64,000 nucleotides of DNA from Ignavibacteria bacterium (GTDB lineage: Bacteria; Bacteroidota; Ignavibacteria; Ignavibacteriales; SURF-24). The stretch lies in assembly GCA_025612245.1 (NCBI GenBank), contig JAAXKQ010000021.1, positions 1-64,000 of the forward strand. Reading direction: 5' to 3'. The notes under the pieces are model-generated. The model did not search any database, was not told where the DNA came from, and saw only the letters and a list, made by a program, of their open reading frames with translations. A program made the translations under genes and the position numbers. This document shows, piece by piece, positions 5,070-23,112 of this stretch; the stretch's first letter is position 1, and every line of letters starts with the position of its first letter.

Positions 5070-5075
5070 GTTGTA

Positions 5076-6496: not shown

Positions 6497-7078
6497 CTAG
6501 AGACTGTTAATATATCTTTCAACTACTCTTACGTACATGCTTCTGAAGCTCTCCGGCGTAAACTTTTTTGTATGCTGGCCCGTCTGCAGCATGAAGGATA
6601 TCGCACCATGGCACATGCACAGAAAACCGAAAATTATTTCCCTGACCCCTTCATCATCTGCATTTGAAATCAGCTTTACGGTTTCCTTCATCAGCTCCAT
6701 ATTGTTTCTCATGGCTTCATTTGGGGCCGGGCGCTCAAGACTGAACATCAGCTGAAAGAGCTCCTTGTATTTTATGGCAAAGTCCAGATGAATTAAGGCT
6801 AACTTCGACATTAGCTTCTTTGGGTCCGATTCCTTCTTTTTTTCATCCTCAAACTGACTGTGCAATATTTCGAAGCCCGCATAGGCAAGCTCCTGAAGGA
6901 GATTTTCCTTGTTTTCAAAATACTCATAGACAATTGGGGGCGTATATTCAACTCTGCTGGCGATTTTTCGTATAGTTACTGCCTGCCATCCTTCCTCGGA
7001 GGCAATTTCCCTTGCTGCATCAAGTATCCTTAACCTTATTTCTTCCTTTTCTCTTTGTCTTCTTTCAATGTGACTCAT
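6497..7078 (-). CDS. TetR/AcrR-family transcriptional repressor of the efflux operon
   Basis: This 193-residue protein has a TetR-type helix-turn-helix at about residues 14-58 (ILDAAREIASEEGW, then TIRKIASRVEYTPPIVYEYF) and an all-helical ligand-binding C-terminal domain. It is the first gene of the minus-strand efflux cluster, 68 bases upstream of the tolC-like start. By family rule it is a local repressor released by a pump substrate. Two similar dyads, one before its own start and one before the channel gene, are its likely operators. The C-terminal domain gives no hint of the ligand. Confidence 0.92.
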   Translation of the reverse strand: MSHIERRQREKEEIRLRILDAAREIASEEGWQAVTIRKIASRVEYTPPIVYEYFENKENLLQELAYAGFEILHSQFEDEKKKESDPKKLMSKLALIHLDFAIKYKELFQLMFSLERPAPNEAMRNNMELMKETVKLISNADDEGVREIIFGFLCMCHGAISFMLQTGQHTKKFTPESFRSMYVRVVERYINSL

Positions 7079-7097
7079 TATTTCACCGTTATTTTTT

Positions 7098-7110
7098 CTA
7101 ACAATGTTAG
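7098..7110. promoter_or_regulatory. Candidate TetR operator, perfect dyad
   Basis: CTAACAATGTTAG is a perfect inverted repeat around a central A, placed 20-32 bases upstream of the tetR ATG. A second, looser dyad (TGTT-N6-AACA) follows at 7129-7142. The position fits autorepression. Confidence 0.6.
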
Positions 7111-7276
7111 ACGCAACATACCAAAAAATGTTCTATGTAACAAAGATTTTTATGAAATTTTTTAAAATATGTCGGAATTAAGGCTGATTTACGGGGGTAT
7201 TCCCGAAAAAGAACCCATAAGCCCGGGGCTGAAAGCAATGAGACGGAAAAGTGAATAAAAATTGGGCTAATGCTGA

Positions 7277-8164
7277 ATGCAAAAATTGTTATATTTGAAT
7301 CCAGAATTTGAAAATTATCGGATTTGTACTTTGAAAGTAAATATCAGCTATTTCTTACTCTTGCTCATAATTCCGTTTTTGAATATAAAAGCTCAGGACG
7401 GATTGATAAAAGATTATTACGACAACGGACACCTTAAATCGGCCGTATATTATGCCAACGACATTTTGCACGGAACTGCCCGGTGGTTCCATGAAAACGG
7501 CGTACTGAAGGAAGAAAAAAACTACGAAATGGGGAAGCTCAACGGCTGGATCAGAACTTACTACGAAAACAGCGCCCCAAAGCTGGAACTCTTTATTAAA
7601 GACGGCAAACGCGACGGCATAGCAAAGGAATATTATGAAAACGGCGGCCTGAAGACTTATTTGGTCTATGTAGAAGGCATACTGAAGGAAAAAAAGGAAT
7701 ATGGCTACGACGTAACGCTACCGGCACCTGATCCCGCGGGAAAAACAAATGATATGCTTATGAAAGGCGGACCAAGAAAGAGTACAACGCTTTCTTCAAA
7801 TGAAAACTCAGCTGCGCCGGGAGCCGAAAACCTGGTTAAGACACAGAACTCAAAAGAAAATTCTGATGAATTCTTCCTGGCTGTTGAGGAATACCCTCAG
7901 CCCGTCGGAGGACTTGATGCCATTACTTCAAAACTCGTTTACCCATCTAATGCCCGTACGGCCGGTATTGAAGGGGAAGTAATCGTTAGGGCATTTATTG
8001 ACGAGGCAGGCGCAGTTTCAAAGACGGAAATTGTTAAGGGTATCGGCTTCGGCCTTAATGAAGCGGCACAGGAGGCTGTTAAACAAACCATGTTCCACCC
8101 CGGCAGACAGAACGGAAAGCCGGTTAAAGTCCAGATTGTAATCCCCGTAAAGTTCAAGCTGTAA
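7277..8164 (+). CDS. YwqK-type repeat protein fused to a TonB C-terminal domain
   Basis: The protein has three visible parts. A hydrophobic anchor or signal (about residues 23-40) is followed by at least four roughly 20-23-residue repeats of the YwqK/MORN-like type (DYYDNGHLKSAVYYANDILHG, then WFHENGVLKEEKNYEMGKLNG and so on to about 145), a Ser/Asn-rich linker, and a TonB C-terminal domain (about 205-295: YPQPVGG, ARTAGIEGEVIVRAFIDEAG, VIPVKFKL). TonB domains of this type contact the plug of outer-membrane receptors. No ExbBD genes are adjacent. The start is uncertain: a TTG at 7331 would place the signal peptide nearer the N-terminus. A perfect terminator follows. Confidence 0.85.
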   Translation: MQKLLYLNPEFENYRICTLKVNISYFLLLLIIPFLNIKAQDGLIKDYYDNGHLKSAVYYANDILHGTARWFHENGVLKEEKNYEMGKLNGWIRTYYENSAPKLELFIKDGKRDGIAKEYYENGGLKTYLVYVEGILKEKKEYGYDVTLPAPDPAGKTNDMLMKGGPRKSTTLSSNENSAAPGAENLVKTQNSKENSDEFFLAVEEYPQPVGGLDAITSKLVYPSNARTAGIEGEVIVRAFIDEAGAVSKTEIVKGIGFGLNEAAQEAVKQTMFHPGRQNGKPVKVQIVIPVKFKL

Positions 8165-10267: not shown

Positions 10268-11560
10268 TTGTCCTTAAGGATACTTATTGGAGACAGAGAT
10301 AAAGATACCAGGAATATAATAAAACAGATAATTGACGATTCTTTCAAATGCAAGTTTACGGAAGTTGAGGAAGTAAGGGAATTCATAACGGCAGCTATAA
10401 ATCAGGAGTTTGATCTGGCTATTTTGGACTTGGATATACAGCCTCAGAATTACGAAAAGATAGTCAGTGTTGTAAGGTCGGTTCATTCGAATGATAAGCT
10501 GCCGCTGGTAATTTTAGCAAGCGTTCTGGACAAGGAAAAAATAATTGGGCTTTTGAAGCTTGGTATATCGGACATTATTCTGAAGCCCATTTACCCGAAT
10601 TCCGCTTCGGATAAAATTAAAAGTCTGTTGAAAGAAATTTCTGCCAGGAAAACTGCGGGCAGGGAAGGTGCGGAGCCTGAGGAAGACGATACGACTCAGG
10701 ATTCATCGGGGAAGGGAAAATTCCTTCTTGTCGATCACGACAGGACCTTCCGTACGCAGTTTACACGGCTCTTTGGCGAGAATTATGAAATAACAATTGC
10801 CGAGAACGGGCAGGACGGGTTAAAGCTTTTTGAACAGCTTCAGCCGGAGTACGTTTTTGTCGGCGAGCAGATTAAAGTTATAAATGAAAGAGCCCTGGTG
10901 CAGAAGATTAGAAGCGTACCGGGCGGCACGCAGGCAAAAATATACTTTCTCTCAACCGTCTTAAAATCAACTGCCATGAAGTCGAACCTCTTCAACGGTG
11001 TAGTGGAAAAGTCGCCTTCTGTTGAAACCTTCAACAAGGAGTTCCGCAAAGTGGTCTTTGGCGAAGAGATGAACCTGTTCCAGAAAGCCGGCAAAGTCTT
11101 AAGGGCAGAGCTGGGTCCCCAGCTTGGCAAGCTGGCCGCAGGGGAATTCAAGCAGGCAATTGGGATGGAAGCTGAGCTGATTCCGCAGAACAGCACCGTT
11201 AAAATTGCCAATGAGACGCTGGCTACAGTTGAACTGCTCGATGAAAAGAAAGAGGTATCTGTAACCGTAGGCTTATTCGGAAGCGCAAACGACATGCTCT
11301 TAATTGCAGAGAAGGTGACCGGTGAACCGGTACCGTTCAACAGTGCGGCAATTGAAGCAATTGGGGGAGTAGTAGCCTCGATAAGTGAACGGGTGAATAA
11401 CGTTCTTGGCGCAAGCGGCTTAAAGCTGCTGCCTCAGCCCTTCAAGGTAACCTCGCGACTGGAGAACAAGCTCAATTACGACTGGGACGTGGAAGTAGGA
11501 GTAAAAGGGCCGTCAAACGAGCTCTATAAGGTTGCCGCCTATTGTTCGAAGTACGTTTAG
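10268..11560 (+). CDS. Double receiver-domain protein with CheX-like C-terminus
   Basis: The first receiver (residues 2-120) keeps the phosphoacceptor aspartate (LAILDLDIQ). The second (about 150-260) starts with FLLVDHDRTF but has VFVGEQI where the aspartate should be, so it is probably not phosphorylated. The C-terminal 150 residues look like the CheX/chemotaxis-phosphatase fold (AAIEAIGGVVASISERVNNVLG); this part is an inference from style. The start is a TTG with GGAGG four bases upstream, and no ATG fits better. It may link chemotaxis signalling to the receptor gene at the start of the window. No partner kinase is adjacent. Confidence 0.8.
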   Translation: MSLRILIGDRDKDTRNIIKQIIDDSFKCKFTEVEEVREFITAAINQEFDLAILDLDIQPQNYEKIVSVVRSVHSNDKLPLVILASVLDKEKIIGLLKLGISDIILKPIYPNSASDKIKSLLKEISARKTAGREGAEPEEDDTTQDSSGKGKFLLVDHDRTFRTQFTRLFGENYEITIAENGQDGLKLFEQLQPEYVFVGEQIKVINERALVQKIRSVPGGTQAKIYFLSTVLKSTAMKSNLFNGVVEKSPSVETFNKEFRKVVFGEEMNLFQKAGKVLRAELGPQLGKLAAGEFKQAIGMEAELIPQNSTVKIANETLATVELLDEKKEVSVTVGLFGSANDMLLIAEKVTGEPVPFNSAAIEAIGGVVASISERVNNVLGASGLKLLPQPFKVTSRLENKLNYDWDVEVGVKGPSNELYKVAAYCSKYV

Positions 11561-11593
11561 CATAAAAAACATTGCTTAAGAACAAAAAGCTGG

Positions 11594-11624
11594 TTGACAA
11601 AGGGGTTAAACTTCTTTAAATTTG
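11594..11624 (+). promoter_or_regulatory. Promoter of the tRNA-Ala gene
   Basis: TTGACA at 11594-11599 is followed after 17 bases by TAAATTTG (11617-11624). The second box fits the Bacteroidota TAnnTTTG -7 element exactly. The tRNA begins 35 bases downstream. Confidence 0.65.
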
Positions 11625-11658
11625 TGATATGATTTAGCATTAACTAAATCCAAGACCC

Positions 11659-11782
<124 letters not shown>

Positions 11783-12325
11783 ACCTCTGAAAAAAACTGG
11801 ATTAAATTTGGATTACTTTGCCAAACTTTGACTGGTGATGATCTTACTTAGACTTCTTTTAACCGAATTCAAAGAGATTTCTTCGACGGTATTAAATTAG
11901 TTAAACGTTCTTGTACTGAAAGTGTCTGAGATACCTCCGTCCATTCACGCTATTCTCATTGTCTGAAGCGACCATAATTAGTTAAATAAAACCTTCAGAA
12001 TTCTCATTAGAACTGATTCAGCCCAAATTCTTTTCTCTGGGCCATACCTCTAAAACGCAGAAATTCTTTAACTTAGAAAATATGTATTTACTTGCGAACT
12101 ATTATTTAAGATCCCTCGTTTTCCTTCCTTCCTGACCACAAAACCTGCCTTTTTACCTGTAACAATGAAATACTTATTCCACAGGTTTATTAAAAAACTT
12201 TACCCCGCGAAAACGCGGTATTCCAGAGCGTGAAATCCTCGTAATTTGCCAATGGAAACAAATTATATGCAGTAATGATTTGGCAGGTTTTTGAAGAATT
12301 CACCAATTTGCAAATGGAAAATAAA
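11783..12325. other. AT-rich gene-free stretch inside the tRNA-Ala accessory region
   Basis: No ORF with a ribosome site is visible. The only structure I see is a small perfect hairpin CCGCG-AAAA-CGCGG near 12204-12218 and the first two copies of a 13-base motif, TTGCCAATGGAAA (12246) and TTGCAAATGGAAA (12308). A third, TTGCAAATGAAAA, occurs at 12427 in the structured leader. Confidence 0.5.
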
Positions 12326-12470
12326 AACCCGAAAAGTCTCAACTCTTTCATAAAGTTTCAACTCTTCGGGTTATAATATTGAAAACCAACTGGCTTGCCG
12401 TGTTGGTCTCCCCTTTGGGTTTTTAGTTGCAAATGAAAACTACAAAAGGGGAGTTTTAGAAGCAAGCCGT
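12326..12470 (+). ncRNA. Candidate structured RNA leader upstream of a 56-aa ORF
   Basis: Three pairings are stacked in 145 bases. AACCCGAA near 12326 pairs with TTCGGGTT near 12365-12372. GGCTTGC (12392-12398) pairs with GCAAGCC (12462-12468). Inside the latter, CTCCCCTTT (12408-12416) pairs with AAAGGGGAG (12445-12453), with a further TAGTT/AACTA pairing near the tip. A competing ACCAAC/GTTGGT hairpin (12385-12407) could form instead. The structure ends about 30 bases before the ORF's start. It could be a regulatory leader, a processing signal or a recombination site; I do not recognise the family. Confidence 0.45.
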
Positions 12471-12499
12471 AAATATCTTAAAAATAATACGGAGAGAAA

Positions 12500-12670
12500 A
12501 TGGGCAGATTAAACCCCCGTCCTGGATTCCATCTCGAGTTCAGGGCATATGTCACCGATAAGAACGGGAAGAGGCACTATGCATCCTACTATGGCCATAA
12601 GGCCTTTCCCATATGGGTCCCTGACGAAGAGAAAGAGACCTCCGAAGAGGATGAATCTTCGGTAGAATAA
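12500..12670 (+). CDS. Small charged protein of unknown function (56 aa)
   Basis: The frame starts with ATG at 12500 after GGAGAG and ends with TAA. The product begins MGRLNPRPGFHLEFRAYV, has an aromatic middle (HYASYYGHKAFPIWVP) and a very acidic tail (DEEKETSEEDESSVE). I do not recognise a family. It is followed by a decayed DNA methylase and preceded by a structured leader, all between the two tRNA-Ala repeats, so it probably belonged to the integrated element. The good ribosome site and the biased composition argue that it is real. Confidence 0.6.
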   Translation: MGRLNPRPGFHLEFRAYVTDKNGKRHYASYYGHKAFPIWVPDEEKETSEEDESSVE

Positions 12671-12928
12671 CCTATGGAAGGCTGCCTCAACGGGCGGCCT
12701 TTTTTAACAAATAACAAAATTATGTGCGCCCAAAATGTGACAACTCTGCCTATATCGAACCTATTACTCGATGGAAATATTTTTGGATGCTAAAAACAAG
12801 CTGCAGCAGAAGGATCATTTGAACGAAACAGAATGTGCATTTGACTTTCCATACAGAACCCAGTCTTCCCGGGTACTGGAAACTCCTGTGGTTCCTAGAT
12901 CCGGGCGCACGCGGAAACCAGTGGGTAG
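12671..12928. other. Degraded sequence upstream of the methylase remnant
   Basis: No frame is convincingly coding. Short open frames on both strands across 12815-13113 have no family character. In the methylase frame a TAG at 12926 blocks the reading, so this stretch may be decayed 5' sequence of the same gene. Confidence 0.4.
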
Positions 12929-13300
12929 TGGTTCACATTCCTGAAGCGCATGGAGTTGATCAACACATGCCTCAAGCGCGTGTGCATCGAATGCCTGTAT
13001 TTTCAGATGAAAATCAGGAAGTACGATACTCCGGACACGCTCTTTTACTGCGACCCGCCTTATGTCTCTGCAGAGAAATATTACGACGTTCCTTTTATGA
13101 TGGAAGACCATGAGCGTTTGGCCGGTCTCCTGAAGGGAATAAAAGGGAAGTTTGTATTAAGTTACTATGATCACCCCTTCATCCGGGAGCAGTACTCAGG
13201 ATACAGGATTTTAACAAAAGAGGTCTCGAAACATAGCTACGGGATGACGGTAAATTCCAAGGCAAAGGAGCGTCCCAAAGGGCAAGAATTGCTTATATAG
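12929..13300 (+). pseudogene. DNA adenine methylase (D12 class), C-terminal remnant
   Basis: The frame carries the D12-class catalytic motif DPPY (FYCDPPYVSAEKYYD) preceded by RKYDTPDTL and followed by family-typical KGKFVLSYYDHPFIREQY and SKAKERPKGQELLI. Family resemblance continues upstream (WFTFLKRMELINTCLKRV) only to a TAG at 12926. The N-terminal AdoMet-binding motif (FxGxG type) and most of the recognition region are missing. The ATG at 12950 lies inside the domain. It is therefore a 5'-truncated relic of an orphan or phage-borne N6-adenine methylase, consistent with erosion of an integrated element. Confidence 0.8.
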
Positions 13301-13332
13301 AATTATTAATAAATAAAGGCCCAACTGGGCCA

Positions 13333-14343
13333 TTATTTTACAAGAAAACTAGAAAATATATTTAATAAGATTGGTAAAACAATCAATGTTGGGAACCCAT
13401 AAGTAACAAACTTTATCCATATATTCCAAGCTTTCAATCTTTGTTTTCCCCTGCCTATTTCGATGGCAGTTCTAGGATAATAAAGTATTATTTGTAAAAT
13501 TAATGCAAGAATAATCATATATAGATAACTATTACTATTCTTGGCTTTGTAATTCTGAGAGCATTCTTTATAAATATCTTTATATTGATAACCCGTATTT
13601 AATGCTAAAATGTACTCGATAGCTTTCGGTTCATTATCTTTTGTAATACCATTTTCAACTATTTTTATAATTCTATTTTTAAGAGCTCCTTTATAAGCTT
13701 CATTTATGGAATCATTATTATTCAATAAATTCATACCCCAAATAATCATAAAAGTAATTAATGGAAGTCCAAAAATAGGTAGAATACGGCCGATATTGCA
13801 CCAATACGTAATTAACTTATTTACTTTTACTTTCTCTATCCAATTTATTATTTCATACTGAAATTCCTGAAATAACGGTAAGGGAGTTCTAAAATTTTTA
13901 TCTATTTCAATTTTCCCACGGGAATGCCTGTCCAGTTTGATAGCTATGTCAATATCTCCATTCACAATATTGATAGATATTTCATCAGGAATTTCATCCT
14001 TTGTGGCTGGATCTGTCAGGATATCCCTAAAATTCTTCCCAATTAATGATTTCTTAGAATGGAAGCGTACACTTACCTCTACTTCGTTTTTTGATTTTAG
14101 GTCCTCCATTTGATAAATATATTTGTCAATACTAGAATCATTAGGGGACGGAATTGAACCCTTAAATTTATTCACATTTTCCTTAATGTATTTTTCCCGT
14201 AAGGCTACAATCTGTTTTTCGGTGTACTCATTAAAAATTACTACATATTTCGATATGATTTCATCAAGCTTTTCTAAATGTTCAATGGAAATGAAGAATG
14301 GTCCAGTAAATTCTTTTTCGATAGGGAATATCAATTCTGCCAT
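13333..14343 (-). CDS. AT-rich membrane protein of unknown function (336 aa)
   Basis: An N-terminal soluble part of about 170 residues (FPIEKEFTGPFFISIEHL; charged, with predicted strands such as EVEVSVRFHSKKSL) is followed by a membrane segment near 182-205 (FGLPLITFMIIWGMNLL) and two more near 275-295 (YLYMIILALILQIILYY) and 310-330. AAGGAG lies 5 bases before the ATG. Its codon use is clearly more AT-rich than the flanking chromosomal genes, and it lies between the two tRNA-Ala repeats. Both facts suggest recent acquisition. I do not recognise a family; a membrane effector or abortive-infection role would be pure speculation. Confidence 0.75.
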   Translation of the reverse strand: MAELIFPIEKEFTGPFFISIEHLEKLDEIISKYVVIFNEYTEKQIVALREKYIKENVNKFKGSIPSPNDSSIDKYIYQMEDLKSKNEVEVSVRFHSKKSLIGKNFRDILTDPATKDEIPDEISINIVNGDIDIAIKLDRHSRGKIEIDKNFRTPLPLFQEFQYEIINWIEKVKVNKLITYWCNIGRILPIFGLPLITFMIIWGMNLLNNNDSINEAYKGALKNRIIKIVENGITKDNEPKAIEYILALNTGYQYKDIYKECSQNYKAKNSNSYLYMIILALILQIILYYPRTAIEIGRGKQRLKAWNIWIKFVTYGFPTLIVLPILLNIFSSFLVK

Positions 14344-14655
14344 GTTGTCTCCTTAATGAGAGTGATGCGAAACTCATAAAATATATTGCAACTAAATTTA
14401 AGCAGTGAAAAATGAAATAATTTGGGAAGGGTCTCTTATTATCAAACACTATAAAACAACATGTAAATTATTTATCTACTTAACCAAATGCAATACATCA
14501 TAAAACATAATGAGACTATATCTTGTGGCCTAATTATTCAATGTCGGGAAATCACACTGGGACAGTTTTGGGACAGTTCGTGCAAAATATCACACAAAAG
14601 CACAGAATGATTCTTTGTTTTTGCACGATTATGGCCCTGTAGGAGGCGGAATGCA
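14344..14655. other. Gene-free AT-rich boundary of the accessory region
   Basis: Nothing is convincingly coding. A short direct repeat GGGACAGTT occurs twice at about 14559-14579. The minus-strand frame that crosses the tRNA copy here is an antisense-tRNA artefact. Confidence 0.5.
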
Positions 14656-14752
14656 TGAATGGCATTCAAGAGGTCAGGAGTTCGATTCTCCTTAGCTCCA
14701 CAAAAAAGCTCGATTTTAATGCAAAATCGAGCTTTTTCCGTTTTAAATTTGA
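14656..14752 (+). repeat. Direct repeat copy 2 (partial tRNA-Ala 3' end + terminator), candidate attachment site
   Basis: This is a second copy of the tRNA-Ala segment from the anticodon arm to the terminator and beyond. The T-arm reads GTTCGATTC instead of GTTCGATCC, and the hairpin gains one base. There is no 5' half of a tRNA upstream, so it is not a functional tRNA. Together with 11687-11782 it brackets about 2.9 kb. Confidence 0.85.
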
Positions 14753-14916
14753 GCCCCCGGAAAAGATGGATAAAATATGGATATTTCTGCAATTGATCTG
14801 TTTTTCCTGCTAGTATTCAGTTCCAGTCTTTCTTTGTGTTTTTTATCTTTTTCACGGTAACACAGGTATAAATATCCGTCACGTTCTCTTATATATGCGA
14901 GTCGTCTTTTGGCCAT
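14743..14916 (-). pseudogene. Tyrosine recombinase (integrase) N-terminal remnant
   Basis: A 57-residue frame begins MAKRRLAYIRERDGYLYLCY and continues REKDKKHKERLELNTS. This matches the arm-type DNA-binding N-terminus of phage or ICE tyrosine recombinases (basic start, a strand with YLYLCYRE, then GKRHxExL-like sequence). After about residue 36 the resemblance stops and the frame runs into the terminator part of the tRNA-Ala repeat. No catalytic R-H-R-Y domain exists nearby. It is best read as an integrase deleted down to its first domain at the attachment site. Confidence 0.6.
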
Positions 14917-14978
14917 AATAATTTACTTATTTTATATAAATTTAAGACTTATGTTTCTTCTCCTTAATAAAGGTAGTG

Positions 14979-15983
14979 TTATAAATACTCTCTTAATAAA
15001 TCTAAGCAGCTCAATTCCGCTAAGGTTACAGTACTTTCGATAATGCGAACAGGATTTCCATCTTTTGTCCTGGTTAGTAACTTGCCTTTTATTCTGCTCA
15101 TTTCCCCATTTTTCAGACCTATGGCAGTGGCGTAAACTCTGGCAGTACTATTTATTGTTTCCGGCATCCCGAGCACTTCCAGGTTTTCAGGCGCAAAACC
15201 AAATCCGAGAAAGAAAATCCTTCTGGCCTTTGCAATTATATCTTTTATATTGCTTAATCCCAGATCCTTCCTCTCTTCGTGAATAGTCCGAATATTTTTT
15301 GTGCCCTGCTCAACTATAGGTAAATTATAGTCACGGCTATATCCCAGATAATTGAAATCTAACTCCTTATATTCATCTTGCCCTTTATTTTCATATTGTA
15401 AATCCAGGTCACCAATTTGACCATATACATGGAGAATCGGAATTTTTTTATATACTTCCGTGAGTTTTCCCCAGTCATTTTGGAAGTCAAAAGAGTTTGC
15501 AAGAAAAAGGTAAAGGCTGTATTCAAGTGACCTGTCGTAATTGAATGTAATAAAATGCACGTTATTTTGTGTAATCTCTGTCCACGTTTTAGAATCTCTG
15601 ATCGTATCGCTCATCCGGCCAAATATATAAGAGTACCAGTTTTCATTTTTACTCTCAGCCTCATTAGCTCTGCTTTTCTTTTCAGCTTTCAGTATCTCCA
15701 TTACTATTGCCATTTTCCCGAAGTTTGCAAACTCACCCCTTCTTGAAAGAAACAAATCAATCGAGGCATTGCCTGATAATCGGAAAGCATTTGCAAATAC
15801 TGAGCCTTCTTGCCTTTTTTTATTAGTTACAATGTCAGAGATAGGGCCATCGTTATAGTATAGTCTCGCATAGTCATTAGCAAAGTTCTTACATATTAAT
15901 GTGCGCAGCTGAGCGCCTGTGGGGAATCCATAGGGGAAACTTGCCCCTGCTCCCAAAATAAATACTGTCGGTTCTTTAATCAT
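14979..15983 (-). CDS. SIR2-like domain protein (putative NAD-binding defence protein)
   Basis: This 334-residue protein has the SIR2-like Rossmann fingerprint at its N-terminus (FILGAGASFPYGFPTG, residues 8-23). It also has the HFITFNYDRSLEY motif near 143-155, equivalent to the (T)xNYD of SIR2-like proteins, and ILHVYGQIG near 181-189 with the expected catalytic histidine. A late Rossmann strand IFFLGFGFAPENLEVLG follows near 260-276. SIR2-like domains of this type commonly act as NAD+ hydrolases in anti-phage systems; that role is an inference here. The gene starts 18 bases after the stop of a small lipoprotein gene and appears to be the last of a minus-strand cassette beside a tRNA integration site. 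Confidence 0.8.
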   Translation of the reverse strand: MIKEPTVFILGAGASFPYGFPTGAQLRTLICKNFANDYARLYYNDGPISDIVTNKKRQEGSVFANAFRLSGNASIDLFLSRRGEFANFGKMAIVMEILKAEKKSRANEAESKNENWYSYIFGRMSDTIRDSKTWTEITQNNVHFITFNYDRSLEYSLYLFLANSFDFQNDWGKLTEVYKKIPILHVYGQIGDLDLQYENKGQDEYKELDFNYLGYSRDYNLPIVEQGTKNIRTIHEERKDLGLSNIKDIIAKARRIFFLGFGFAPENLEVLGMPETINSTARVYATAIGLKNGEMSRIKGKLLTRTKDGNPVRIIESTVTLAELSCLDLLREYL

Positions 15984-16001
15984 ATCAATAAATAGGCCCT
16001 A

Positions 16002-16493
16002 TTATTTCTTCTTCCGGACATATGTCTTTTTGCCTTTGGAGTTTATGTAGTACTGGCCACCTCTCGGGCCGGTGAAGATCTCTCGGGATCCTGAAGAGAT
16101 TTGTGTATTCTCGCCTCCGTTATACCCCTGGTGCTGCCAGCAGTAGTCGCTTCCTTCCTTGGCATTCCTGCTGCACTGAGTCCCTTTCTTCGTTATGGCC
16201 TTGCATTGCGTGGATCCAGTAATGCCAGTGGTACCGGACTTTACGGTTTTACTTTTATTATCAGAAGACTGCAGCAGATTGGCATTGGAATTCAAGTTGC
16301 TCTGGGAACCAAGTCTCGTCGAAAGATCCTCGAGAAGGCTCTTGTTAGCTTGGCTTTCCTCGGCCAGCTGATCTAGCTTGCCATTTAGCTCGGTTACCTG
16401 ACTCTTGAGGCGGGCCACCTGTTCGGTTGATGCACAGCCGAAATGAAACAAGGAGACTGCCAGTAAAAGTGAAAAAAATATAATCCTTTTCAT
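16002..16493 (-). CDS. Small lipoprotein with coiled coil, Cys/His motif and basic adaptor tail
   Basis: A lipoprotein signal (LFHFGCAS, Cys 20) is followed by a coiled coil at about 25-65 (VARLKSQVTELNGKLDQLAE). Next comes a compact Cys/His module CKAITKKGTQCSRNAKEGSD-YCWQH (DUF5763-like), and then a basic Gly-rich tail GPRGGQYYINSKGKKTYV of the type called PBCV-specific basic adaptor. Similar tails occur at the ends of viral and bacterial proteins and may bind carbohydrate or nucleic acid; the function is unproven. It starts 12 bases after the preceding small lipoprotein gene and ends 18 bases before the SIR2-like gene, so the three probably form an operon. Confidence 0.8.
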   Translation of the reverse strand: MKRIIFFSLLLAVSLFHFGCASTEQVARLKSQVTELNGKLDQLAEESQANKSLLEDLSTRLGSQSNLNSNANLLQSSDNKSKTVKSGTTGITGSTQCKAITKKGTQCSRNAKEGSDYCWQHQGYNGGENTQISSGSREIFTGPRGGQYYINSKGKKTYVRKKK

Positions 16494-16505
16494 TTTTCCC
16501 CACTT

Positions 16506-16718
16506 TTATTTATAGGTCCAGTATTTCACGCCGCCGTGATGAGAGCATGCTCCGGATCCGGTTGCAGAAGTAGTTGAGCCGTCATTACAAACGGCACCAA
16601 TTCTCGTTCCTGAGTTTCCGGATGAACTTTCGGACTGTACCGGATTACTATCAGATGAATCGAAACAATCTGTAGACAAAAAGCCAAACATAAGAATTAG
16701 TAAGAGCCACCGTTTCAA
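16506..16718 (-). CDS. Small lipoprotein-like protein with DUF3761-type motif (70 aa)
   Basis: The start is a TTG with AGGAGG four bases upstream. The N-terminus is a signal peptide with possible lipobox (MFGFLSTDC), followed by a Ser-rich linker and then GAVCNDGSTTSATGSGACSH and HGGVKYW, the DUF3761-type pattern (CxDG...S...GACSHHGGV). Such modules occur in exported proteins of phages and bacteria and have no known reaction. It is the first gene of the three-gene SIR2 cassette. Confidence 0.75.
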   Translation of the reverse strand: MKRWLLLILMFGFLSTDCFDSSDSNPVQSESSSGNSGTRIGAVCNDGSTTSATGSGACSHHGGVKYWTYK

Positions 16719-16813
16719 AGAACCTCCTATTTATTTTGGGGGAAGTAGTCAGATTTCTCCAATTAGAATTTCCAGAACTCATCTATTTAATAATTCATAG
16801 ACAATTGTTCTGA

Positions 16814-17173
16814 TTATTTTTCAGATTTAGTAAATTCCCATTCCTTTTCATGAAATAATACTGCAACATCCCCGTCATCGTTCCAAACACCTTCATTCAG
16901 ATTCCAATGAAATTGATAAATTGTGTTAGATCCATTCTCTTTTATAGAATTAGTTCCCTTTCCTGTTACTAAAAATACGGTATCGCCCTTTTTTACTTTC
17001 TGGTCAGGAAACCAATAAACATGCCTTAATTTGTTCGAAATCTGCCCGGGGTTTGTATAGGTGGAATCAGCAATTAAATATTCACCAAGCTCGCAATCAT
17101 TTTCCACGGAGAGACGGACGAATTCACTATTCTCTTTTCCTACTTTTTGCACCTTACTAATCTTTAAGTCCAT
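16814..17173 (-). CDS. Lamin-tail-like (LTD) small protein
   Basis: The 119-residue product reads as a single beta-sandwich of the lamin-tail type: EFVRLSVENDCELGEYLIAD (strand plus LxGYxL-like turn), WFPDQKVKKGDTVFLVTGKG (the pG-xxVxVxTG element) and WNDDGDVAVLFHEKEWEF (the WNNxGDxVxLxD element). There is no signal peptide. TAGGAG lies 6 bases before the ATG. It is about 95 bases upstream of the lipoprotein/SIR2 cassette, on the same strand, and could be its first gene or an independent one. The fold assignment is by pattern only. Confidence 0.65.
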   Translation of the reverse strand: MDLKISKVQKVGKENSEFVRLSVENDCELGEYLIADSTYTNPGQISNKLRHVYWFPDQKVKKGDTVFLVTGKGTNSIKENGSNTIYQFHWNLNEGVWNDDGDVAVLFHEKEWEFTKSEK

Positions 17174-17996
17174 AATGACTCCTAAGAATATTATTTTGAA
17201 ATATATTTAGTAATAAATTCCTTCAGGGATCTCTAGGAGACCGGAATTTCCGCATGTCGGTTTATAATCTATTAGTGACTTGATCTTCCAATTAGACTAT
17301 GCAAAGCACATAAATTGATACAATCCAAACAATTGCATAAATTAAATTGCCTGACGTAAAATATTATTTTCTTTTTTCGACATGCAAATGCCAGCTTTTC
17401 CCTCCAAAGGGGCAATTTCCCTAATGTATCAAGTTGCTACTTTTTGAAATTTGGGAAAAATGCTCGCCTATAACAGTTGTCGTTAGTCATTTATAACTCA
17501 AAAATTTCTTCTATATATTAATATGGTGACGAGACCCGTTTTCGGAAAATTTTCTGAATTTATTTTATTTATTTTTGAAAGAATATGAATAGTGGAGGCT
17601 CTGGCACTCTTTTTGAGGTTTAACTAAAGCGATTTCTGACTTTCATCTTTGCTAAAGTTGACACTCCTAAAGGCATGATAATTATTTTTACTGGTAATAC
17701 CTGAATCCGTAACAAGATCATAATTACTCCTATTTCCACCAGTTAATACAGCCTGAACACAAAAACACTTATAACTGGCATGCCCGGCAACCAAAATTGT
17801 GCTCTTTCCATTTAGGCCTGAAATTTTATTTTATTATTGGTTGCCTGCTGTATCCTTTTTCTTGCAGATGGCTTTTTTTTAGGGGAAATGATTTTTCTTC
17901 CTTTCGAACCGGACTTGCTCTTCAGATCTATTCCCATTCCCTTGTCCTCCGGATTTTTACCTCCCCTTCATTTCTTTAATAAAAGGAGGTGAGGCT
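17174..17996. other. Gene-free stretch between the accessory region and the propeller gene
   Basis: About 820 bases with no credible gene. A 60-codon frame at 17797-17979 has no ribosome site and a composition unlike a real protein. The composition is AT-rich with several short T and A runs. The right boundary of the accessory region may lie here, but I see no third tRNA-Ala copy. Confidence 0.5.
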
Positions 17997-20666
17997 ATGA
18001 GAATCTTTACTTCTATATTTCTATTTATCCTTCTTTTTTCATCCCTTTCTCCTCTCCGGCCTCAATGGTCACAGACACCCGGCCTCGTTGGCGACAGGAT
18101 TACTGCCTTCGGCATTATGGGAACGGAACTCTTTGCCGGCACTGAACGCGCTAAAATATTCCTGTCAACTGATATCGGCTTAACCTGGAGGAGCGCAAAT
18201 AACGGCTTTACCTGGGCACCCGTAAGCGCGTTTGCCGAAACGGGAGGCTATATTTTTGCCGCAGCCGATAGCGGCGGCGGAATGTTCCGCTCTTCTGACA
18301 ACGGTCTTAACTGGGAGGCCTCTAATGCCGGACTTACCAGCACCAGGGTCAGCTCACTTGTACTCAAAAATGGGAAACTTTTTGCCGGCACCAGGGGCGG
18401 GGGAGTCTTTCTTTCCACCGATAACGGCGCAAACTGGAACACTGTAAATAACGGACTTACCAGCCTTCAGGTGAGTACCCTTGCCGTACTTGGCGATAAA
18501 CTATTTGCCGGCACTTCAGACTCCGGTATGTTCATTTCTGCCGATGAGGGCTTAAACTGGAGCCAGATCAATAACGGACTTTCAGACAAAAGAATTTTGT
18601 CCCTCCTTTCCCGCGGAACCGACCTTTTTGCCGGAACTTTGCAGGGACTTTTCCTTTCTCCCGATAACGGCTCGGACTGGATAAAAAAAAATTCCGGACT
18701 TAAGGACACTTCTATTTCCACGCTGGCTTCAATCGGGGAAAACCTCTTCGCCGGAACTGCCAACAGCGGCGTTTACATTTCGTCCGATAACGCTGCAAAC
18801 TGGAGAAGCATTAACGCGGGTCTGCCCCAAAATACAAGCGTTACTGCCTTTGCCGTAATGGGCCCTCAACTTATTATGGCTTCCTATTCAGGAAAAATTT
18901 TCCTTACAACCGAATTAGGCTCCGTCTGGACGGAAATTACTTCGGGACTTACTACCAGATTTATTACCTCAATGGCTACACTTGGCTCCCGTACTTTTGC
19001 AGGAACCGATACGGCCGGTGTGTTCCTTTCTTTGAATAACGGCCGCAGCTGGAATAAAGTAAACGACGGACTTTCAAATAAAAAAATTACCTGCCTTGCA
19101 ACAGACGGAAAGGATATTTTTGCCGGAACAGATAGCAGCGGAGTTTTTCGTTCAAATAATAACGGGGAACTGTGGACCCAAGTCAATAGCGGCCTTACAA
19201 ATACCGTCATCACTGCTTTGTTCGTTAATTCTTCAAACATTTATGCCGGAACTTCCGGCAGCGGCGCTTTTATTTCAACTGATAACGGGAATAACTGGCG
19301 CCCTTCGAACAACGGTATCTCAAACCAGACCGTAAGGGCTTTTGCCGTGAACGGAAAATATCTCTTTGCCGGGGCTTTTGGCGTCTATCGCTCATCGGAT
19401 AACGGGGAGAACTGGACCGCGGTTAATAACGGCCTCGAATATAAACGCGTTACATCTCTGGCCGTCTTGGATTCAACCGTCTTTGCCGGCATTGATATGG
19501 GCGGTGGACTCTTCCGCTCACTGGATAACGGGGAAAACTGGACACAGCAGACAGGTGCCGGCGGCTTTGTCTATGCGATTGCAGTCATCGGGAAATATCT
19601 CTTTACCGGAATTGCATGGGATGGGGTGAGGCTTTCAGACGATAACGGCGCAACCTGGAAAAGTGTCACCGATGGCTTCCCGGCAAATCTGTCTGTTTAT
19701 TCACTTGCAATGAACTCAACCACGCTCTTTGCCGGATCATACCTGGACGGCGTGTGGATGAGACCTTTGTCTGAAATGATTACCCCTCTGCCTCTTGAAG
19801 CGCCGGATGTCCCCAGACTCCTTAATCCCCTTAATAACCAGGCTGACCTGAAAGAAGACGTTCAGTGCGTATGGAGTAAATCCGGGCGCTCTGAACTGTT
19901 TAGAATTTGCCTGGCCGAAGATAAAGACTTTAAGAACATTCTTTTCTGCGACTCAACCTTAAAGGATACCCTGAAAGAGATAAAGGAATTAAAACAGGGG
20001 ATGCGGTATTTCTGGAAGGTTATGGCAATGAACACTAACGGCAATAGCGGGTTTTCCGAAGTCTGGAATTTTACCGTATTTTTAAGCGCCCCGGAGGGGC
20101 TTAATGCAGAAGTGCTTTCAAATAGCAAGATCAGGCTCAGCTGGAAGCCGGGTGCAAATGAGAGCGCAAGATATATTATTGAAAGAAAACAGGCCCCGTA
20201 CGCCGGCTTTGATGCAATCGATACTACAAAGGAAGGCTTAACTTACTCATACACAGATTCAACAATTAAGGCTCCCGCTGAATACATATACAGGCTTAAA
20301 GCATTTACACCTTATGCAGTTTCGGGCTACAGTAATGAGATTCAGTTAACCGTGACTGAGGTAAGTTCGGTTAAGGCAGTTCCCAAAAGCTATTCTTTGC
20401 TGCAGAATTACCCTAATCCCTTTAACCCCGCAACAATGCTTAAATATGAAATTCCCGAGGAAAGCTTTGTTGGGATTTATATATATGACCTGCTTGGAAG
20501 GCTCGTTGACAAGCTGGTTCACTCCGTCCAGGCGGCAGGCTACTACACGGTTGAGTTTAATGCGCCCAATCTTCCTTCGGGAACGTACATCTATTTTATC
20601 GAGGCAAAACCCGTTAGTGGTTCCAAGGGCTTCTACGAAGCAAGAAAAATGATTCTGCTCAGGTAG
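17997..20666 (+). CDS. T9SS-exported beta-propeller (BNR/sortilin-like repeat) protein
   Basis: A signal peptide (MRIFTSIFLFILLFSSLSPL) is followed by about 14 tandem repeats of roughly 40 residues to about residue 600, each built like GLTxxxVxxLAxxGxxLFAGT, then GVFxSxDNGxxWxxVNNG. These resemble YCF48/BNR photosystem-assembly or sortilin-type propeller blades. A fibronectin-III-like segment lies at about 690-785, and the protein ends in a T9SS type A sorting domain from about residue 800 (LLQNYPNPFNPATMLKYEIP ... KMILLR). It should be exported to the cell surface. The ribosome site AAGGAGGTGAG is excellent and a strong terminator follows. The ligand is unknown. Confidence 0.9.
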   Translation: MRIFTSIFLFILLFSSLSPLRPQWSQTPGLVGDRITAFGIMGTELFAGTERAKIFLSTDIGLTWRSANNGFTWAPVSAFAETGGYIFAAADSGGGMFRSSDNGLNWEASNAGLTSTRVSSLVLKNGKLFAGTRGGGVFLSTDNGANWNTVNNGLTSLQVSTLAVLGDKLFAGTSDSGMFISADEGLNWSQINNGLSDKRILSLLSRGTDLFAGTLQGLFLSPDNGSDWIKKNSGLKDTSISTLASIGENLFAGTANSGVYISSDNAANWRSINAGLPQNTSVTAFAVMGPQLIMASYSGKIFLTTELGSVWTEITSGLTTRFITSMATLGSRTFAGTDTAGVFLSLNNGRSWNKVNDGLSNKKITCLATDGKDIFAGTDSSGVFRSNNNGELWTQVNSGLTNTVITALFVNSSNIYAGTSGSGAFISTDNGNNWRPSNNGISNQTVRAFAVNGKYLFAGAFGVYRSSDNGENWTAVNNGLEYKRVTSLAVLDSTVFAGIDMGGGLFRSLDNGENWTQQTGAGGFVYAIAVIGKYLFTGIAWDGVRLSDDNGATWKSVTDGFPANLSVYSLAMNSTTLFAGSYLDGVWMRPLSEMITPLPLEAPDVPRLLNPLNNQADLKEDVQCVWSKSGRSELFRICLAEDKDFKNILFCDSTLKDTLKEIKELKQGMRYFWKVMAMNTNGNSGFSEVWNFTVFLSAPEGLNAEVLSNSKIRLSWKPGANESARYIIERKQAPYAGFDAIDTTKEGLTYSYTDSTIKAPAEYIYRLKAFTPYAVSGYSNEIQLTVTEVSSVKAVPKSYSLLQNYPNPFNPATMLKYEIPEESFVGIYIYDLLGRLVDKLVHSVQAAGYYTVEFNAPNLPSGTYIYFIEAKPVSGSKGFYEARKMILLR

Positions 20667-20684
20667 GCTGATTTTCCTTTTGCT

Positions 20685-20739
20685 CAAGTCTGCTCTGAAT
20701 ATTCACATTTAGTGAAGAGGCTTTAGACTTGTTTTTTTT
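20685..20739 (+). terminator. Rho-independent terminator after the propeller gene
   Basis: The outer stem CAAGTCT/AGACTTG (20685-20691 with 20725-20731) encloses an inner TCAC/GTGA stem and is followed by T8. Confidence 0.8.
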
Positions 20740-20847
20740 CGGTGGCGAATTACATTGAAAACATTGAGCCGGTTAATTCAGCTTTGTCTGAAGAGTAAAG
20801 GCTGTCTCTATGAGTGTTTTTAAGAAATTTTAAGGAAAGGACTGAGT

Positions 20848-22602
20848 ATGAAAACAACGGGTGGCGATGTACTGGTTGAAACGCTGATTGCCTGGGGAGT
20901 TAATACTGTCTTCGGTCTTCCCGGCGACGGCATAAACGGAATTATGGAGGCCTTGAGAAAAAGGCAGGATAAAATCAGGTTTATTCACGTCCGCCATGAG
21001 GAATCGGCGGCCTTTATGGCGTGCGCATACGCCAAATTTACGGGCAAACTGGGCTGCTGCCTGGCTACTTCAGGCCCCGGAGGGATTCATCTGCTAAACG
21101 GACTTTATGACGCAAAAATGGACGGACAGCCCGTTATTGCAGTTACCGGCAGCCACTATAGCGACCTTTCAAACACTTTTGCACAGCAGGATGTTGAACT
21201 GGATAAACTATTCATGGACGTGGCAGGCTATAACGTGAGGGTAATGGGCCCTTCGCACATTGAAAATGCAACCTCGCTTGCATGCCGGTATGCATTAAGC
21301 CGTTCTTCTGTGGCACACGTTACCATTGCAACAGATTTCCAGTCCATTGAGGTCAGTGATGCTCACCGCTCTAAAAGAAACGTCCCTTCTCACGTCTCCA
21401 ATGTGTTTGCCAGAAAGGCTGGGCTTCCAGACGAGGAGGATCTTCTGAAGGCAGCCAGAGTCATCAACAGCGGAAAGAAAATTGCCATACTTGCCGGGCG
21501 CGGCGCACTTGACGCAACCGATGAACTGGAACGCCTGGCAGATAAACTCTCGGCGCCCATAATTAAAGCCCTCCTTGGTAAGGCTGCCGTCCCGGATGAG
21601 AGCCCTTTTACAACCGGCGCAATTGGAATTCTTGGTACGGCTCCGTCACAGAAGGCTCTGGAGGAGTGCGATACGCTTTTAATTATTGGAAGCTCGTTTC
21701 CTTACATGGAGTTTTATCCTCAACCGGGAAAAGTTAAAGCCGTGCAGATTGACGTCGATGCCGTAAGAATTGGCCTAAGATATCCCGTTGAAGTGGGCCT
21801 GGTAGGTGACAGTAAGAAGACTCTGCTCAAACTGCTCCCAATGTTGAATACAAACAGTCATACCGAATTCCTGGAAGAGATTCAGGATGAAATGAAGCAG
21901 TGGCGGAAGCTGATGCATGAAAGGGGAACAAGAAAAGACGTTCCAATGAAGCCCCAGGTGGTAGCGCATGAACTGGGTAGTGCGCTTCCTGCAAACGCAA
22001 TCGTAACGTGCGATACGGGAACGGTTACTTCATGGTTCGCCAGATACATTCCCGCCAAACGGGGACAAATGTTTTCACTTTCTGGAAACCTGGCTACAAT
22101 GGCAAACGGCCTTCCTTATGCAATTGCAGCCCAATTGGCTTACCCGGGCCGCCAGGTGGTCGCCTTCGTCGGCGACGGGGGCTTTTCAATGCTCATGGCT
22201 GAGCTTTCCACGTGCGTTAAATATAAGCTGCCTGTTAAAATTGTAATACTCAAGAACAATTCACTTGGCGAAATTAAATGGGAACAGATGGTGTATCTCG
22301 GTAACCCCGAATATGGCGTTGGCCTGGAGCCGATTGATTTTGCATTGTTTGCAAAAAGCTGCGGCGCGGCAGGCTTTTCAATCAAAGATCCCGGCGAGTG
22401 CGGAAACATAATGCAGAAAGCCCTGAAGACCCGGGGTCCCGTCGTAATCGAAGCCGAGGTCGATCCATTTGAGCCTCCAAGCCCGCCCAAGCTGACGCTA
22501 AAAGAGACTAAAAATTTTGCAAAGGCACTGGCAAAAGGGGAGCCGCACCGTGGAAAACTTGCTCTTACTCTTGCCTCGGACAAGGTAAGAGAAATGATCT
22601 GA
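20848..22602 (+). CDS. TPP-dependent pyruvate oxidase/dehydrogenase-like enzyme (PoxB family)
   Basis: The 584-residue protein has the full three-domain layout of TPP enzymes. The N-terminal Pyr domain has the activating glutamate (VRHEESAAFMA, near residue 50) and GLPGDGINGI. The middle nucleotide-like domain spans about 190-330 (KKIAILAGRGA). The PP domain has the metal-binding GDG...NN motif (VGDGGFSMLMAELSTC near 440 to LKNNS near 470). The order and TSGPGGIHLLNGLYDAKMDG match pyruvate oxidases and pyruvate:quinone oxidoreductases better than acetolactate synthase. Typical PoxB uses FAD and gives acetate and CO2. The membrane-binding C-terminal helix of E. coli PoxB is not evident, so the electron acceptor is uncertain. 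Confidence 0.82.
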   Translation: MKTTGGDVLVETLIAWGVNTVFGLPGDGINGIMEALRKRQDKIRFIHVRHEESAAFMACAYAKFTGKLGCCLATSGPGGIHLLNGLYDAKMDGQPVIAVTGSHYSDLSNTFAQQDVELDKLFMDVAGYNVRVMGPSHIENATSLACRYALSRSSVAHVTIATDFQSIEVSDAHRSKRNVPSHVSNVFARKAGLPDEEDLLKAARVINSGKKIAILAGRGALDATDELERLADKLSAPIIKALLGKAAVPDESPFTTGAIGILGTAPSQKALEECDTLLIIGSSFPYMEFYPQPGKVKAVQIDVDAVRIGLRYPVEVGLVGDSKKTLLKLLPMLNTNSHTEFLEEIQDEMKQWRKLMHERGTRKDVPMKPQVVAHELGSALPANAIVTCDTGTVTSWFARYIPAKRGQMFSLSGNLATMANGLPYAIAAQLAYPGRQVVAFVGDGGFSMLMAELSTCVKYKLPVKIVILKNNSLGEIKWEQMVYLGNPEYGVGLEPIDFALFAKSCGAAGFSIKDPGECGNIMQKALKTRGPVVIEAEVDPFEPPSPPKLTLKETKNFAKALAKGEPHRGKLALTLASDKVREMI

Positions 22603-22622
22603 CTAAAAGATAGTATAAGGCA

Positions 22623-22672
22623 AATGACATAAACCACCCCGGCTTTGCTTATGCGGGGTGGTTTATGTCATT
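22623..22672. terminator. Long perfect hairpin between convergent genes
   Basis: A perfect 19-bp stem (AATGACATAAACCACCCCG, 22623-22641, with 22654-22672) has a 12-base loop. It overlaps the stop codon of the minus-strand gene and lies 21 bases after the plus-strand stop. There is no T tract, so it may act as an mRNA 3' end stabiliser or a weak bidirectional terminator. Confidence 0.6.
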
Positions 22673-22946
22673 CAATTGTGGCCCTGCCGCTTTTCATTAC
22701 TTCAATCATCTCTTTTGTTATGCCGGGGATCTTTGCCACCTCATCCCACGACTTAAAAGGCCTCCGTGCAATGATGTCCTTTGCACGGTAGTCGCCAATC
22801 AAAGGTATGTCGGCAATTCTTTTCAGGTCGTCCGTATTCAGGTTAACCGGACTTATGCCGTGTTTACCGTGCTTGAAATTCTCCGGGGTGTTCTGCCCCA
22901 GGTAGCTGTGCGACATGAACTGGCTGCCCCTTCCTTTGTCTCCCAT
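22668..22946 (-). CDS. Helix-hairpin-helix (ComEA-like) small protein
   Basis: The 92-residue protein carries a HhH unit: VNLNTDDLKRIADIPLIGDY (first helix-hairpin with IPLIG), then RAKDIIARRPFKSWDEVAK and IPGITKEMIEVMKSGRA (second hairpin IPGI). ComEA-type HhH modules bind DNA non-specifically. There is no signal peptide, unlike true ComEA, so it is probably cytoplasmic. AAAGGAGGAATGCGC before the ATG is a strong ribosome site. Its neighbours (TPP enzyme, QueG-like protein) give no functional hint. Confidence 0.85.
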   Translation of the reverse strand: MGDKGRGSQFMSHSYLGQNTPENFKHGKHGISPVNLNTDDLKRIADIPLIGDYRAKDIIARRPFKSWDEVAKIPGITKEMIEVMKSGRATIE

Positions 22947-23112
22947 TGCGCATTCCTCCTTTCATTTCTTTTATAAACATATTAAGAACGAATCCACTCT
23001 ATAAAAGCCCATTTTTCTTTGCACGGAAACCGGTAATATTTTAACCTCTTTTGAATGGCTTTTGCAATAAGTTTTTATTTTATATATTACCTTACAACCT
23101 TCGGGAGGAGTT

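What the first reader, a model, noticed from the sequence alone, without database searches (positions are those of the whole stretch)
14979..17173. Putative SIR2-centred cassette with two small lipoproteins and a lamin-tail-like protein next to an integration site
Four minus-strand genes lie beside a tRNA-Ala attachment repeat. The last three are tightly packed (gaps of 12 and 18 bases): a DUF3761-type small lipoprotein, a coiled-coil lipoprotein with a DUF5763-like Cys/His module and a PBCV-type basic tail, and a SIR2-like protein with GAGAS, NYD and His motifs. SIR2-like NADases are known effectors in anti-phage systems, where they pair with cytosolic sensors. Pairing with two exported small proteins is not a combination I know.
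Basis: partly seen in the sequence, partly recalled or inferred. Interest (0 to 1): 0.65.

Follow-up and report, generated by a model that had tools for sequence, protein, structure and literature searches.

The report
Leftover phage cargo beside a tRNA
A probable NAD-destroying anti-virus enzyme and two small exported proteins lie next to a worn-out viral integration site; bacterial viruses carry similar small proteins, and in one case a similar enzyme close by, so the cluster looks like leftover viral cargo rather than a new fixed three-gene system.

Summary
The four minus-strand genes are real, with the stated gaps, beside a duplicated tRNA-Ala 3' end. The 334-aa protein has a confident SIR2 fold (pLDDT 91.5), nearest solved structures being antiphage SIR2 proteins, with N148, D150 and H185 in 69 of 69 aligned sequences (the N/D motif was the search pattern). 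It is usually a lone gene: 0 of 87 SIR2 loci hold a relative of either small gene, and of 296 sampled genomes only the window's own has both close together. The small genes are phage cargo: the lipoprotein's full architecture recurs in 10 viral contigs, in two of them between an S24 repressor and an integrase. DUF3761 lies near DUF5763- or PBCV-type genes in four viral contigs and one other bacterium. One phage (L195) has lipoprotein and SIR2 in one cluster, but with a SIR2 of another lineage. Best reading: relic of a phage's repressor-integrase cargo slot holding a solo abortive-infection NADase plus exported proteins that act separately. Functional pairing is unproven.

The parts
11659..11732 (+). 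tRNA-Ala(GGC), the integration target
   Evidence: ARAGORN; same tRNA in congener G296 and family-mate G298
11684..11813 (.). first copy of the attachment-type direct repeat
   Evidence: the repeat finder D1
14653..14782 (.). second copy of the repeat (79% over 130 nt; 14653-14747 is 92% identical to the congener's tRNA-Ala region)
14800..14916 (-). 39-codon stretch that may be the N-terminus of a lost tyrosine integrase; weak
   Evidence: 44% over 25 aa to the integrase start of L243, E 0.014 against five chosen sequences, no hit at E<=1 in the larger ORF set; no relative in 20 other genomes
14979..15983 (-). SIR2_2-type protein, 334 aa, probable NADase (N148, D150, H185)
16002..16493 (-). 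exported coiled-coil lipoprotein with DUF5763 Cys/His module and PBCV basic tail, 163 aa
   Evidence: phage relatives of the same architecture
16506..16718 (-). small exported DUF3761 protein, 70 aa, TTG start
   Evidence: viral relatives
16814..17173 (-). lamin-tail-domain-like protein, 119 aa, 95 nt upstream of the DUF3761 gene; link to the rest unsupported
   Evidence: 3 of 296 genomes

Best explanation
The cluster is the surviving cargo part of a temperate-phage-like element that integrated into tRNA-Ala. In intact viral relatives the order is S24 repressor, exported DUF5763-type protein (once with DUF3761 before it), one or two variable genes, integrase. Here the SIR2 gene stands in the variable place; the repressor, nearly all of the integrase and the phage body are gone. 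The SIR2 protein most likely works alone: an NADase held inactive until another phage infects, which then destroys NAD and stops the cell (abortive infection). The two small proteins are exported, probably lipid-anchored, rich in Cys/His and (the larger) basic; most likely they act at the envelope or on incoming DNA as superinfection-exclusion or other lysogenic-conversion factors, separately from the SIR2. Shown: gene anatomy, SIR2 fold, residue conservation, phage residence of the families, recurring neighbours. Inferred: that this place was a phage, NADase activity, infection trigger, exclusion role, independence.
For: SIR2 fold: pLDDT 91.5; VIA Z 15.3 PsSIR2, 13.6 ThsA, 13.5 KomC; N148/D150/H185 in 69 of 69 rows. 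SIR2 genes keep changing company, often housekeeping genes; 25 viral loci; integrase among the near neighbours in 5 of 23 viral SIR2 loci. Lipoprotein: 10 viral contigs with the DUF5763 and PBCV parts; repressor-lipoprotein-membrane gene-integrase in L243 and L251, repressor-DUF3761-DUF5763-two genes-integrase in L165; the best relative is L251, 41% over 164 aa. tRNA-Ala repeat; in family-mate G298 a repressor 42% identical to that of L251 lies 2.4 kb beyond the same tRNA-Ala. Mixed base composition: GC at third positions 0.37, 0.57, 0.38 and 0.33 for the four genes against 0.50-0.53 for four flanking genes.
Against: No repressor or phage body gene was found in window 11000-23000 with the ORFs of 11 chosen loci; the integrase remnant is weak; no third copy of the repeat was seen between 14782 and 18000, so the right border is unknown. 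The closest SIR2 relatives are bacterial. SIR2 next to the lipoprotein in L195 and in the window could mean function rather than slot-sharing. No activity was measured.
Confidence: 0.6

Rival explanations
1. Dedicated SIR2-centred defence system: the exported proteins sense the phage or control the SIR2 effector, all in one operon.
For: Gaps of 12 and 18 nt on one strand; lipoprotein and SIR2 relatives 1 kb apart in phage L195; DUF3761 and DUF5763 genes recur together.
Against: 0 of 87 SIR2 loci with either small gene; 0 of 295 other sampled genomes with both close together; the lipoprotein stands without SIR2 in 9 of 10 viral contigs (flanks up to 6 kb, some cut); the SIR2 of L195 is of another lineage.
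Confidence: 0.12
2. Layered exclusion kit: exported DUF5763/PBCV and DUF3761 proteins intercept DNA outside the cytoplasm and the SIR2 is a second, cytoplasmic layer, kept together because both exclude rival phages.
For: SNase beside the lipoprotein in 6 of 10 viral contigs; in L195 exported protein, SNase and SIR2 between terminase and portal genes; basic tail and Cys/His module.
Against: No SNase among the window ORFs scanned; a single phage case; no functional data; the model of the lipoprotein is poor.
Confidence: 0.15
3. Unrelated genes gathered beside a tRNA by chance insertions, without a phage source for the cluster.
For: Unlike base composition of the genes; no phage body genes; large difference from the congener between 11777 and 22670.
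Against: The small-gene families recur together in phages and beside integrases; a phage-type repressor near the same tRNA in G298.
Confidence: 0.08
4. The SIR2 protein is not a defence NADase but a metabolic or protein-modifying sirtuin.
For: Relatives often lie singly among housekeeping genes; canonical sirtuins reach Z 13.0, only 2.3 under the best match.
Against: Only two cysteines, so no four-Cys zinc module (sequence); best solved matches are antiphage proteins; 25 viral loci; a TIR gene directly behind a relative in L219.
Confidence: 0.05

Closest known systems
SIR2_2 / 'SIRim' noncanonical sirtuins: ThsA, DSR1/2, FAM118 (PMC12700824, passages read), with SIR2-HerA and KomC by fold
   Same: SIR2 fold, Asn and His at the expected places, no four-Cys zinc module
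   Different: Stands alone: 334 aa, no SLOG, STAND, APAZ or long C-terminal sensor, no HerA, TIR or KomB partner among the scanned window ORFs
Phage and satellite defence hotspots next to the integrase (P4-like, P2-like; cI-to-integrase slot in Vibrionaceae phages; PMC9122126, passages read)
   Same: Variable cargo between repressor and integrase; SIR2 named among P4 hotspot cargo
   Different: Other phages (hosts of L165, L243, L251 not determined), exported DUF5763/DUF3761 proteins as the recurring part, and only a relic in the window
DUF3761 protein of Halomonas phage Phm3, signal sequence, between endolysin and holin genes (PMC11131426, one passage read)
   Same: Exported DUF3761 protein carried by a temperate phage
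   Different: In a lysis region; in the window beside an attachment repeat
Prophage superinfection-exclusion proteins in general (recalled; PMC10883804 and PMC11436027 seen only in the listing)
   Same: Small envelope proteins encoded by a prophage
   Different: No sequence relation was tested; exclusion activity here is unknown

Membership tests
SIR2_2 noncanonical sirtuins | SIR2 Rossmann-type fold | tested here: met
   pLDDT 91.5, pTM 0.91; VIA Z 15.3 over 247 residues, rmsd 4.3
SIR2_2 noncanonical sirtuins | Active-site Asn and His | tested here: met
   N148 and H185 in 69 of 69 rows; N148 lies in the search pattern; equivalence to N133/H171 of DSR2 is inferred from motif position
SIR2_2 noncanonical sirtuins | Pfam SIR2_2 curated cut-off | tested here: not met
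   14 bits, cut-off 24.5; the L195 relative 23.6. The filing rests on fold and residues, so this is a distant member at most
SIR2_2 noncanonical sirtuins | NADase activity | not testable with these tools
   needs enzyme assay
Thoeris (ThsA/ThsB) | C-terminal SLOG domain and TIR partner | tested here: not met
   334 aa, SIR2 alone; no SLOG or TIR family among the seven window ORFs scanned
SIR2-HerA (Nezha) | HerA ATPase partner | tested here: not met
   no HerA family among the seven window ORFs scanned
DSR1/DSR2 | Long C-terminal sensor, about 1000 aa in all | tested here: not met
   334 aa
Phage repressor-integrase cargo slot | Attachment repeat at a tRNA 3' end | tested here: met
Phage repressor-integrase cargo slot | Integrase gene at one end | tested here: inconclusive
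   39-codon remnant, 44% over 25 aa to the L243 integrase, E 0.014
Phage repressor-integrase cargo slot | Repressor gene at the other end | tested here: not met
   no match of the repressors of L165, L243, L251 anywhere in the 64-kb window; so only a relic of such a slot can be claimed
DUF5763/PBCV phage cargo protein | N-terminal export signal, C..C..YCWQH module and C-terminal GPRGGxYYIN | tested here: met
   alignment with six phage proteins

The most novel reading that the evidence does not exclude
Phages carry a two-layer exclusion kit: exported, Cys/His-rich, basic-tailed proteins (often with a secreted nuclease) that intercept incoming DNA outside the cytoplasm, plus an exchangeable cytoplasmic NAD-destroying effector kept beside them. 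The window would be a chromosomal relic of the SIR2 version, and phage L195 an independent assembly with a SIR2 of another lineage.
Probability: 0.15. Interest if true: 0.7.

Novelty: new variant of a known kind. Interest (0 to 1): 0.45.

Why it matters
It points to a wide group of lone SIR2_2-type proteins (197 relatives confirmed in the species-level genome set through one pattern) carried singly by chromosomes and phages, and to a phage gene pair, exported DUF5763/PBCV protein plus secreted SNase, for which the searches made here found no paper (on the two domain names only). If the pair excludes other phages it is a testable envelope-level defence; if the SIR2 needs no partner it is a minimal NADase defence whose trigger is open.

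Tried and rejected
Conserved SIR2-centred cassette: rejected as a general arrangement (0 of 87). Defence-island test: PADLOC at E<=1e-8 on 129 nearest and 129 distant ORFs of the SIR2 loci matched 93 and 21 families; since one methyltransferase can match many families and matches per protein are not shown, I draw nothing from it. Viral scan with the single window SIR2 found no relative; the profile found 25. Phage records: no SIR2, no DUF3761, one short lipoprotein match. Plasmids: 14 records with SIR2, all Rhizobium or Agrobacterium, 25-30%; one partial lipoprotein match. Solved structures by sequence: one meaningless hit at E 0.51; by profile KomC, E 2.5e-4. Model of the 163-aa lipoprotein: pLDDT 61.8, pTM 0.28, a coiled coil and a short C-terminal hairpin, so no fold search. 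FAM118B came up in Foldseek but not among the 50 VIA rows shown; no special kinship is claimed. Promoter scan at chance level. Motif hits in L169 and L174 next to DUF3761 were read and dropped as spurious. Papers: DUF5763 none, 'PBCV-specific basic adaptor' none, DUF3761 one.

Rows dropped before counts: from alignment A2, 10 of 80 loci without a clean full-length start and L086 and L107 (identical to L085 and L106); 9 of 80 loci from the neighbour test; L222 and L227 of 25 viral SIR2 loci as near-duplicates. One search took 109 neighbour ORFs that I chose out of the lists plus a few more. The protein-family outputs by alignment list only the first 25 families.

Full report
Observation. The four ORFs, their strand and the 12- and 18-nt gaps are as described. 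tRNA-Ala is at 11659-11732; its 3' part is repeated at 14653-14782, next to the cluster. In the congener G296 the same tRNA is present, and in the 20-kb stretch read there blastn finds no counterpart of window 11778-22669 apart from that repeat. Between repeat and SIR2 gene lies a 39-codon stretch that may be the start of a tyrosine integrase; the evidence is weak.

SIR2 protein. Pfam SIR2_2 is under its cut-off; a PADLOC SIR2 model matches at 4e-10. An alignment of 69 sequences gave a model with mean pLDDT 91.5 and pTM 0.91. Foldseek's matches at E<=0.001 are SIR2-HerA, FAM118B and KomC chains; VIA-align gives PsSIR2 Z 15.3, BcThsA 13.6, KomC 13.5, and sirtuins of the classical kind from 13.0 down. 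So the fold is SIR2, and the nearest solved ones are antiphage by a small margin. G11, A12, G13, D76, E101, W116, N148, D150 and H185 occur in 69 of 69 rows; N148 and D150 lie in the pattern by which the relatives were found, H185 does not. DSR2 is inactivated by N133A/H171A (PMC10973363, passages) and FAM118B has N163/H206 (PMC12700824, passages); equating these with N148/H185 is inference. The protein has two cysteines in all, so no four-Cys zinc module.

Is it a cassette? With single sequences, the SIR2 was found in 7 of 296 genomes of the phylum sample, own included, the lipoprotein or its module in 27 of 296, DUF3761 in 15 of 296 at E<=0.01, the LTD protein in 3 of 296 at E<=0.01. With profiles, SIR2 in 16 of 296 (7 of these with best E of 2e-50 or lower), lipoprotein in 21 of 296; only the window's own genome has the two close together. 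In the family, 1 of 5 genomes, the window's own, has the SIR2. A motif scan of the 80 gave one CSxHGG site, on the other strand 4 kb away in L063. The SIR2 genes sit in changing company, often housekeeping genes.

The small genes in viral contigs. Profile scans gave 34 DUF3761 loci, 24 DUF5763 loci and 25 SIR2 loci. Among these 83 loci (some of one contig), DUF3761 and a lipoprotein relative lie together in two contigs (L165/L205, L171/L202) and lipoprotein and SIR2 in one (L195). A second lipoprotein scan gave 20 loci, of which L243-L252 are 10 contigs with both the DUF5763 and the PBCV part; SNase lies beside the gene in 6 of 10 (L245-L249, L252), SIR2 in 1 of 10 (L245, the L195 contig), DUF3761 in 1 of 10 (L248, two genes between). 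L164 has a PBCV-type exported protein directly before DUF3761. In bacteria, G014 (L138) has DUF5763 before DUF3761, and no SIR2. In 1.17 Mb of SIR2 loci, the three motifs gave 0, 1 and 2 hits, so these pairings are not chance matches of the motifs.

The slot. In L243 and L251 an S24 repressor, the lipoprotein, a small membrane-type gene and a tyrosine integrase follow on one strand (in L243 another small exported gene comes before the lipoprotein); in L165 repressor, DUF3761, DUF5763, two more small genes, integrase. In G184 (L141) a DUF5763 gene comes just before an integrase-like gene; in G148 (L143) an integrase comes before it with one gene between. In the window, read along the minus strand: LTD, DUF3761, lipoprotein, SIR2, integrase-like remnant, repeat. 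No repressor was found in the window, but family-mate G298 has one, 42% identical over 209 aa to that of L251, 2.4 kb beyond the same tRNA-Ala. A hotspot between cI repressor and integrase is described for a P2-related phage of Vibrionaceae, and SIR2 among the cargo of P4-like satellites (PMC9122126, passages). SIR2 relatives have an integrase among their nearest neighbours in 5 of 23 viral loci: L225, L232, L237, L238, L240, the last two alike.

L195. Between a terminase (phrog_2) and a portal-like gene (phrog_11226) lie, on one strand, among other small ORFs, the DUF5763/PBCV protein 4971-5510, a secreted SNase 5507-5965, a small lipoprotein 6010-6249, a 66-aa ORF and the SIR2 gene 6552-7508. 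In a tree of 81 SIR2 rows the L195 protein is outside the 31-row set (support 99/87) that holds the window protein; its branch is long and its place unsure; the 10 viral rows are scattered (10 changes). If SIR2 and exported protein belong together they were put together at least twice; otherwise they share landing sites.

Mechanism. Most likely a lone NADase acting by abortive infection, plus exported proteins doing something separate at the envelope. Shown: anatomy, fold, conservation, phage residence of the families. Inferred: that this locus was a phage, activity, trigger, target. The layered-exclusion model is kept as the boldest reading.

Noticed in passing
L219:5001-6434: In a viral contig a SIR2 of this family is followed after 3 nt by a TIR protein (Pfam TIR_2 E 5e-16), a Thoeris-like pairing.
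   Followed up: no
L195, L196, L197, L198, L201, L248: Six viral contigs have an exported DUF5763/PBCV protein followed at once by a secreted SNase.
   Followed up: partly
L138:9172-11285 and L248:4339-7012: DUF3761 and DUF5763 genes with an ion-channel-like gene nearby in both, and in L138 an exported HNH-like protein (read by eye).
   Followed up: no
SIR2 loci L038-L117 (neighbour set): Neighbours include kdsB-type (4), arginyl-tRNA synthetase (3) and RsfS (2) genes: single SIR2 genes inside housekeeping runs.
   Followed up: partly
window 11733-14652: Between the two repeat copies: a Dam-type methyltransferase fragment (12950-13300, +) and a 336-aa DUF5834-like protein (13333-14343, -), a second remnant or element.
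   Followed up: no
L139:5362-8073: The best LTD relative (45%) stands 15 nt before a large gene with an N-terminal AAA-type motif (read by eye).
   Followed up: no
L001 (G000:C23:37131-37640): Elsewhere in the same genome lies another SIR2_2 protein, in a 457-aa open frame, over Pfam's cut-off.
   Followed up: no
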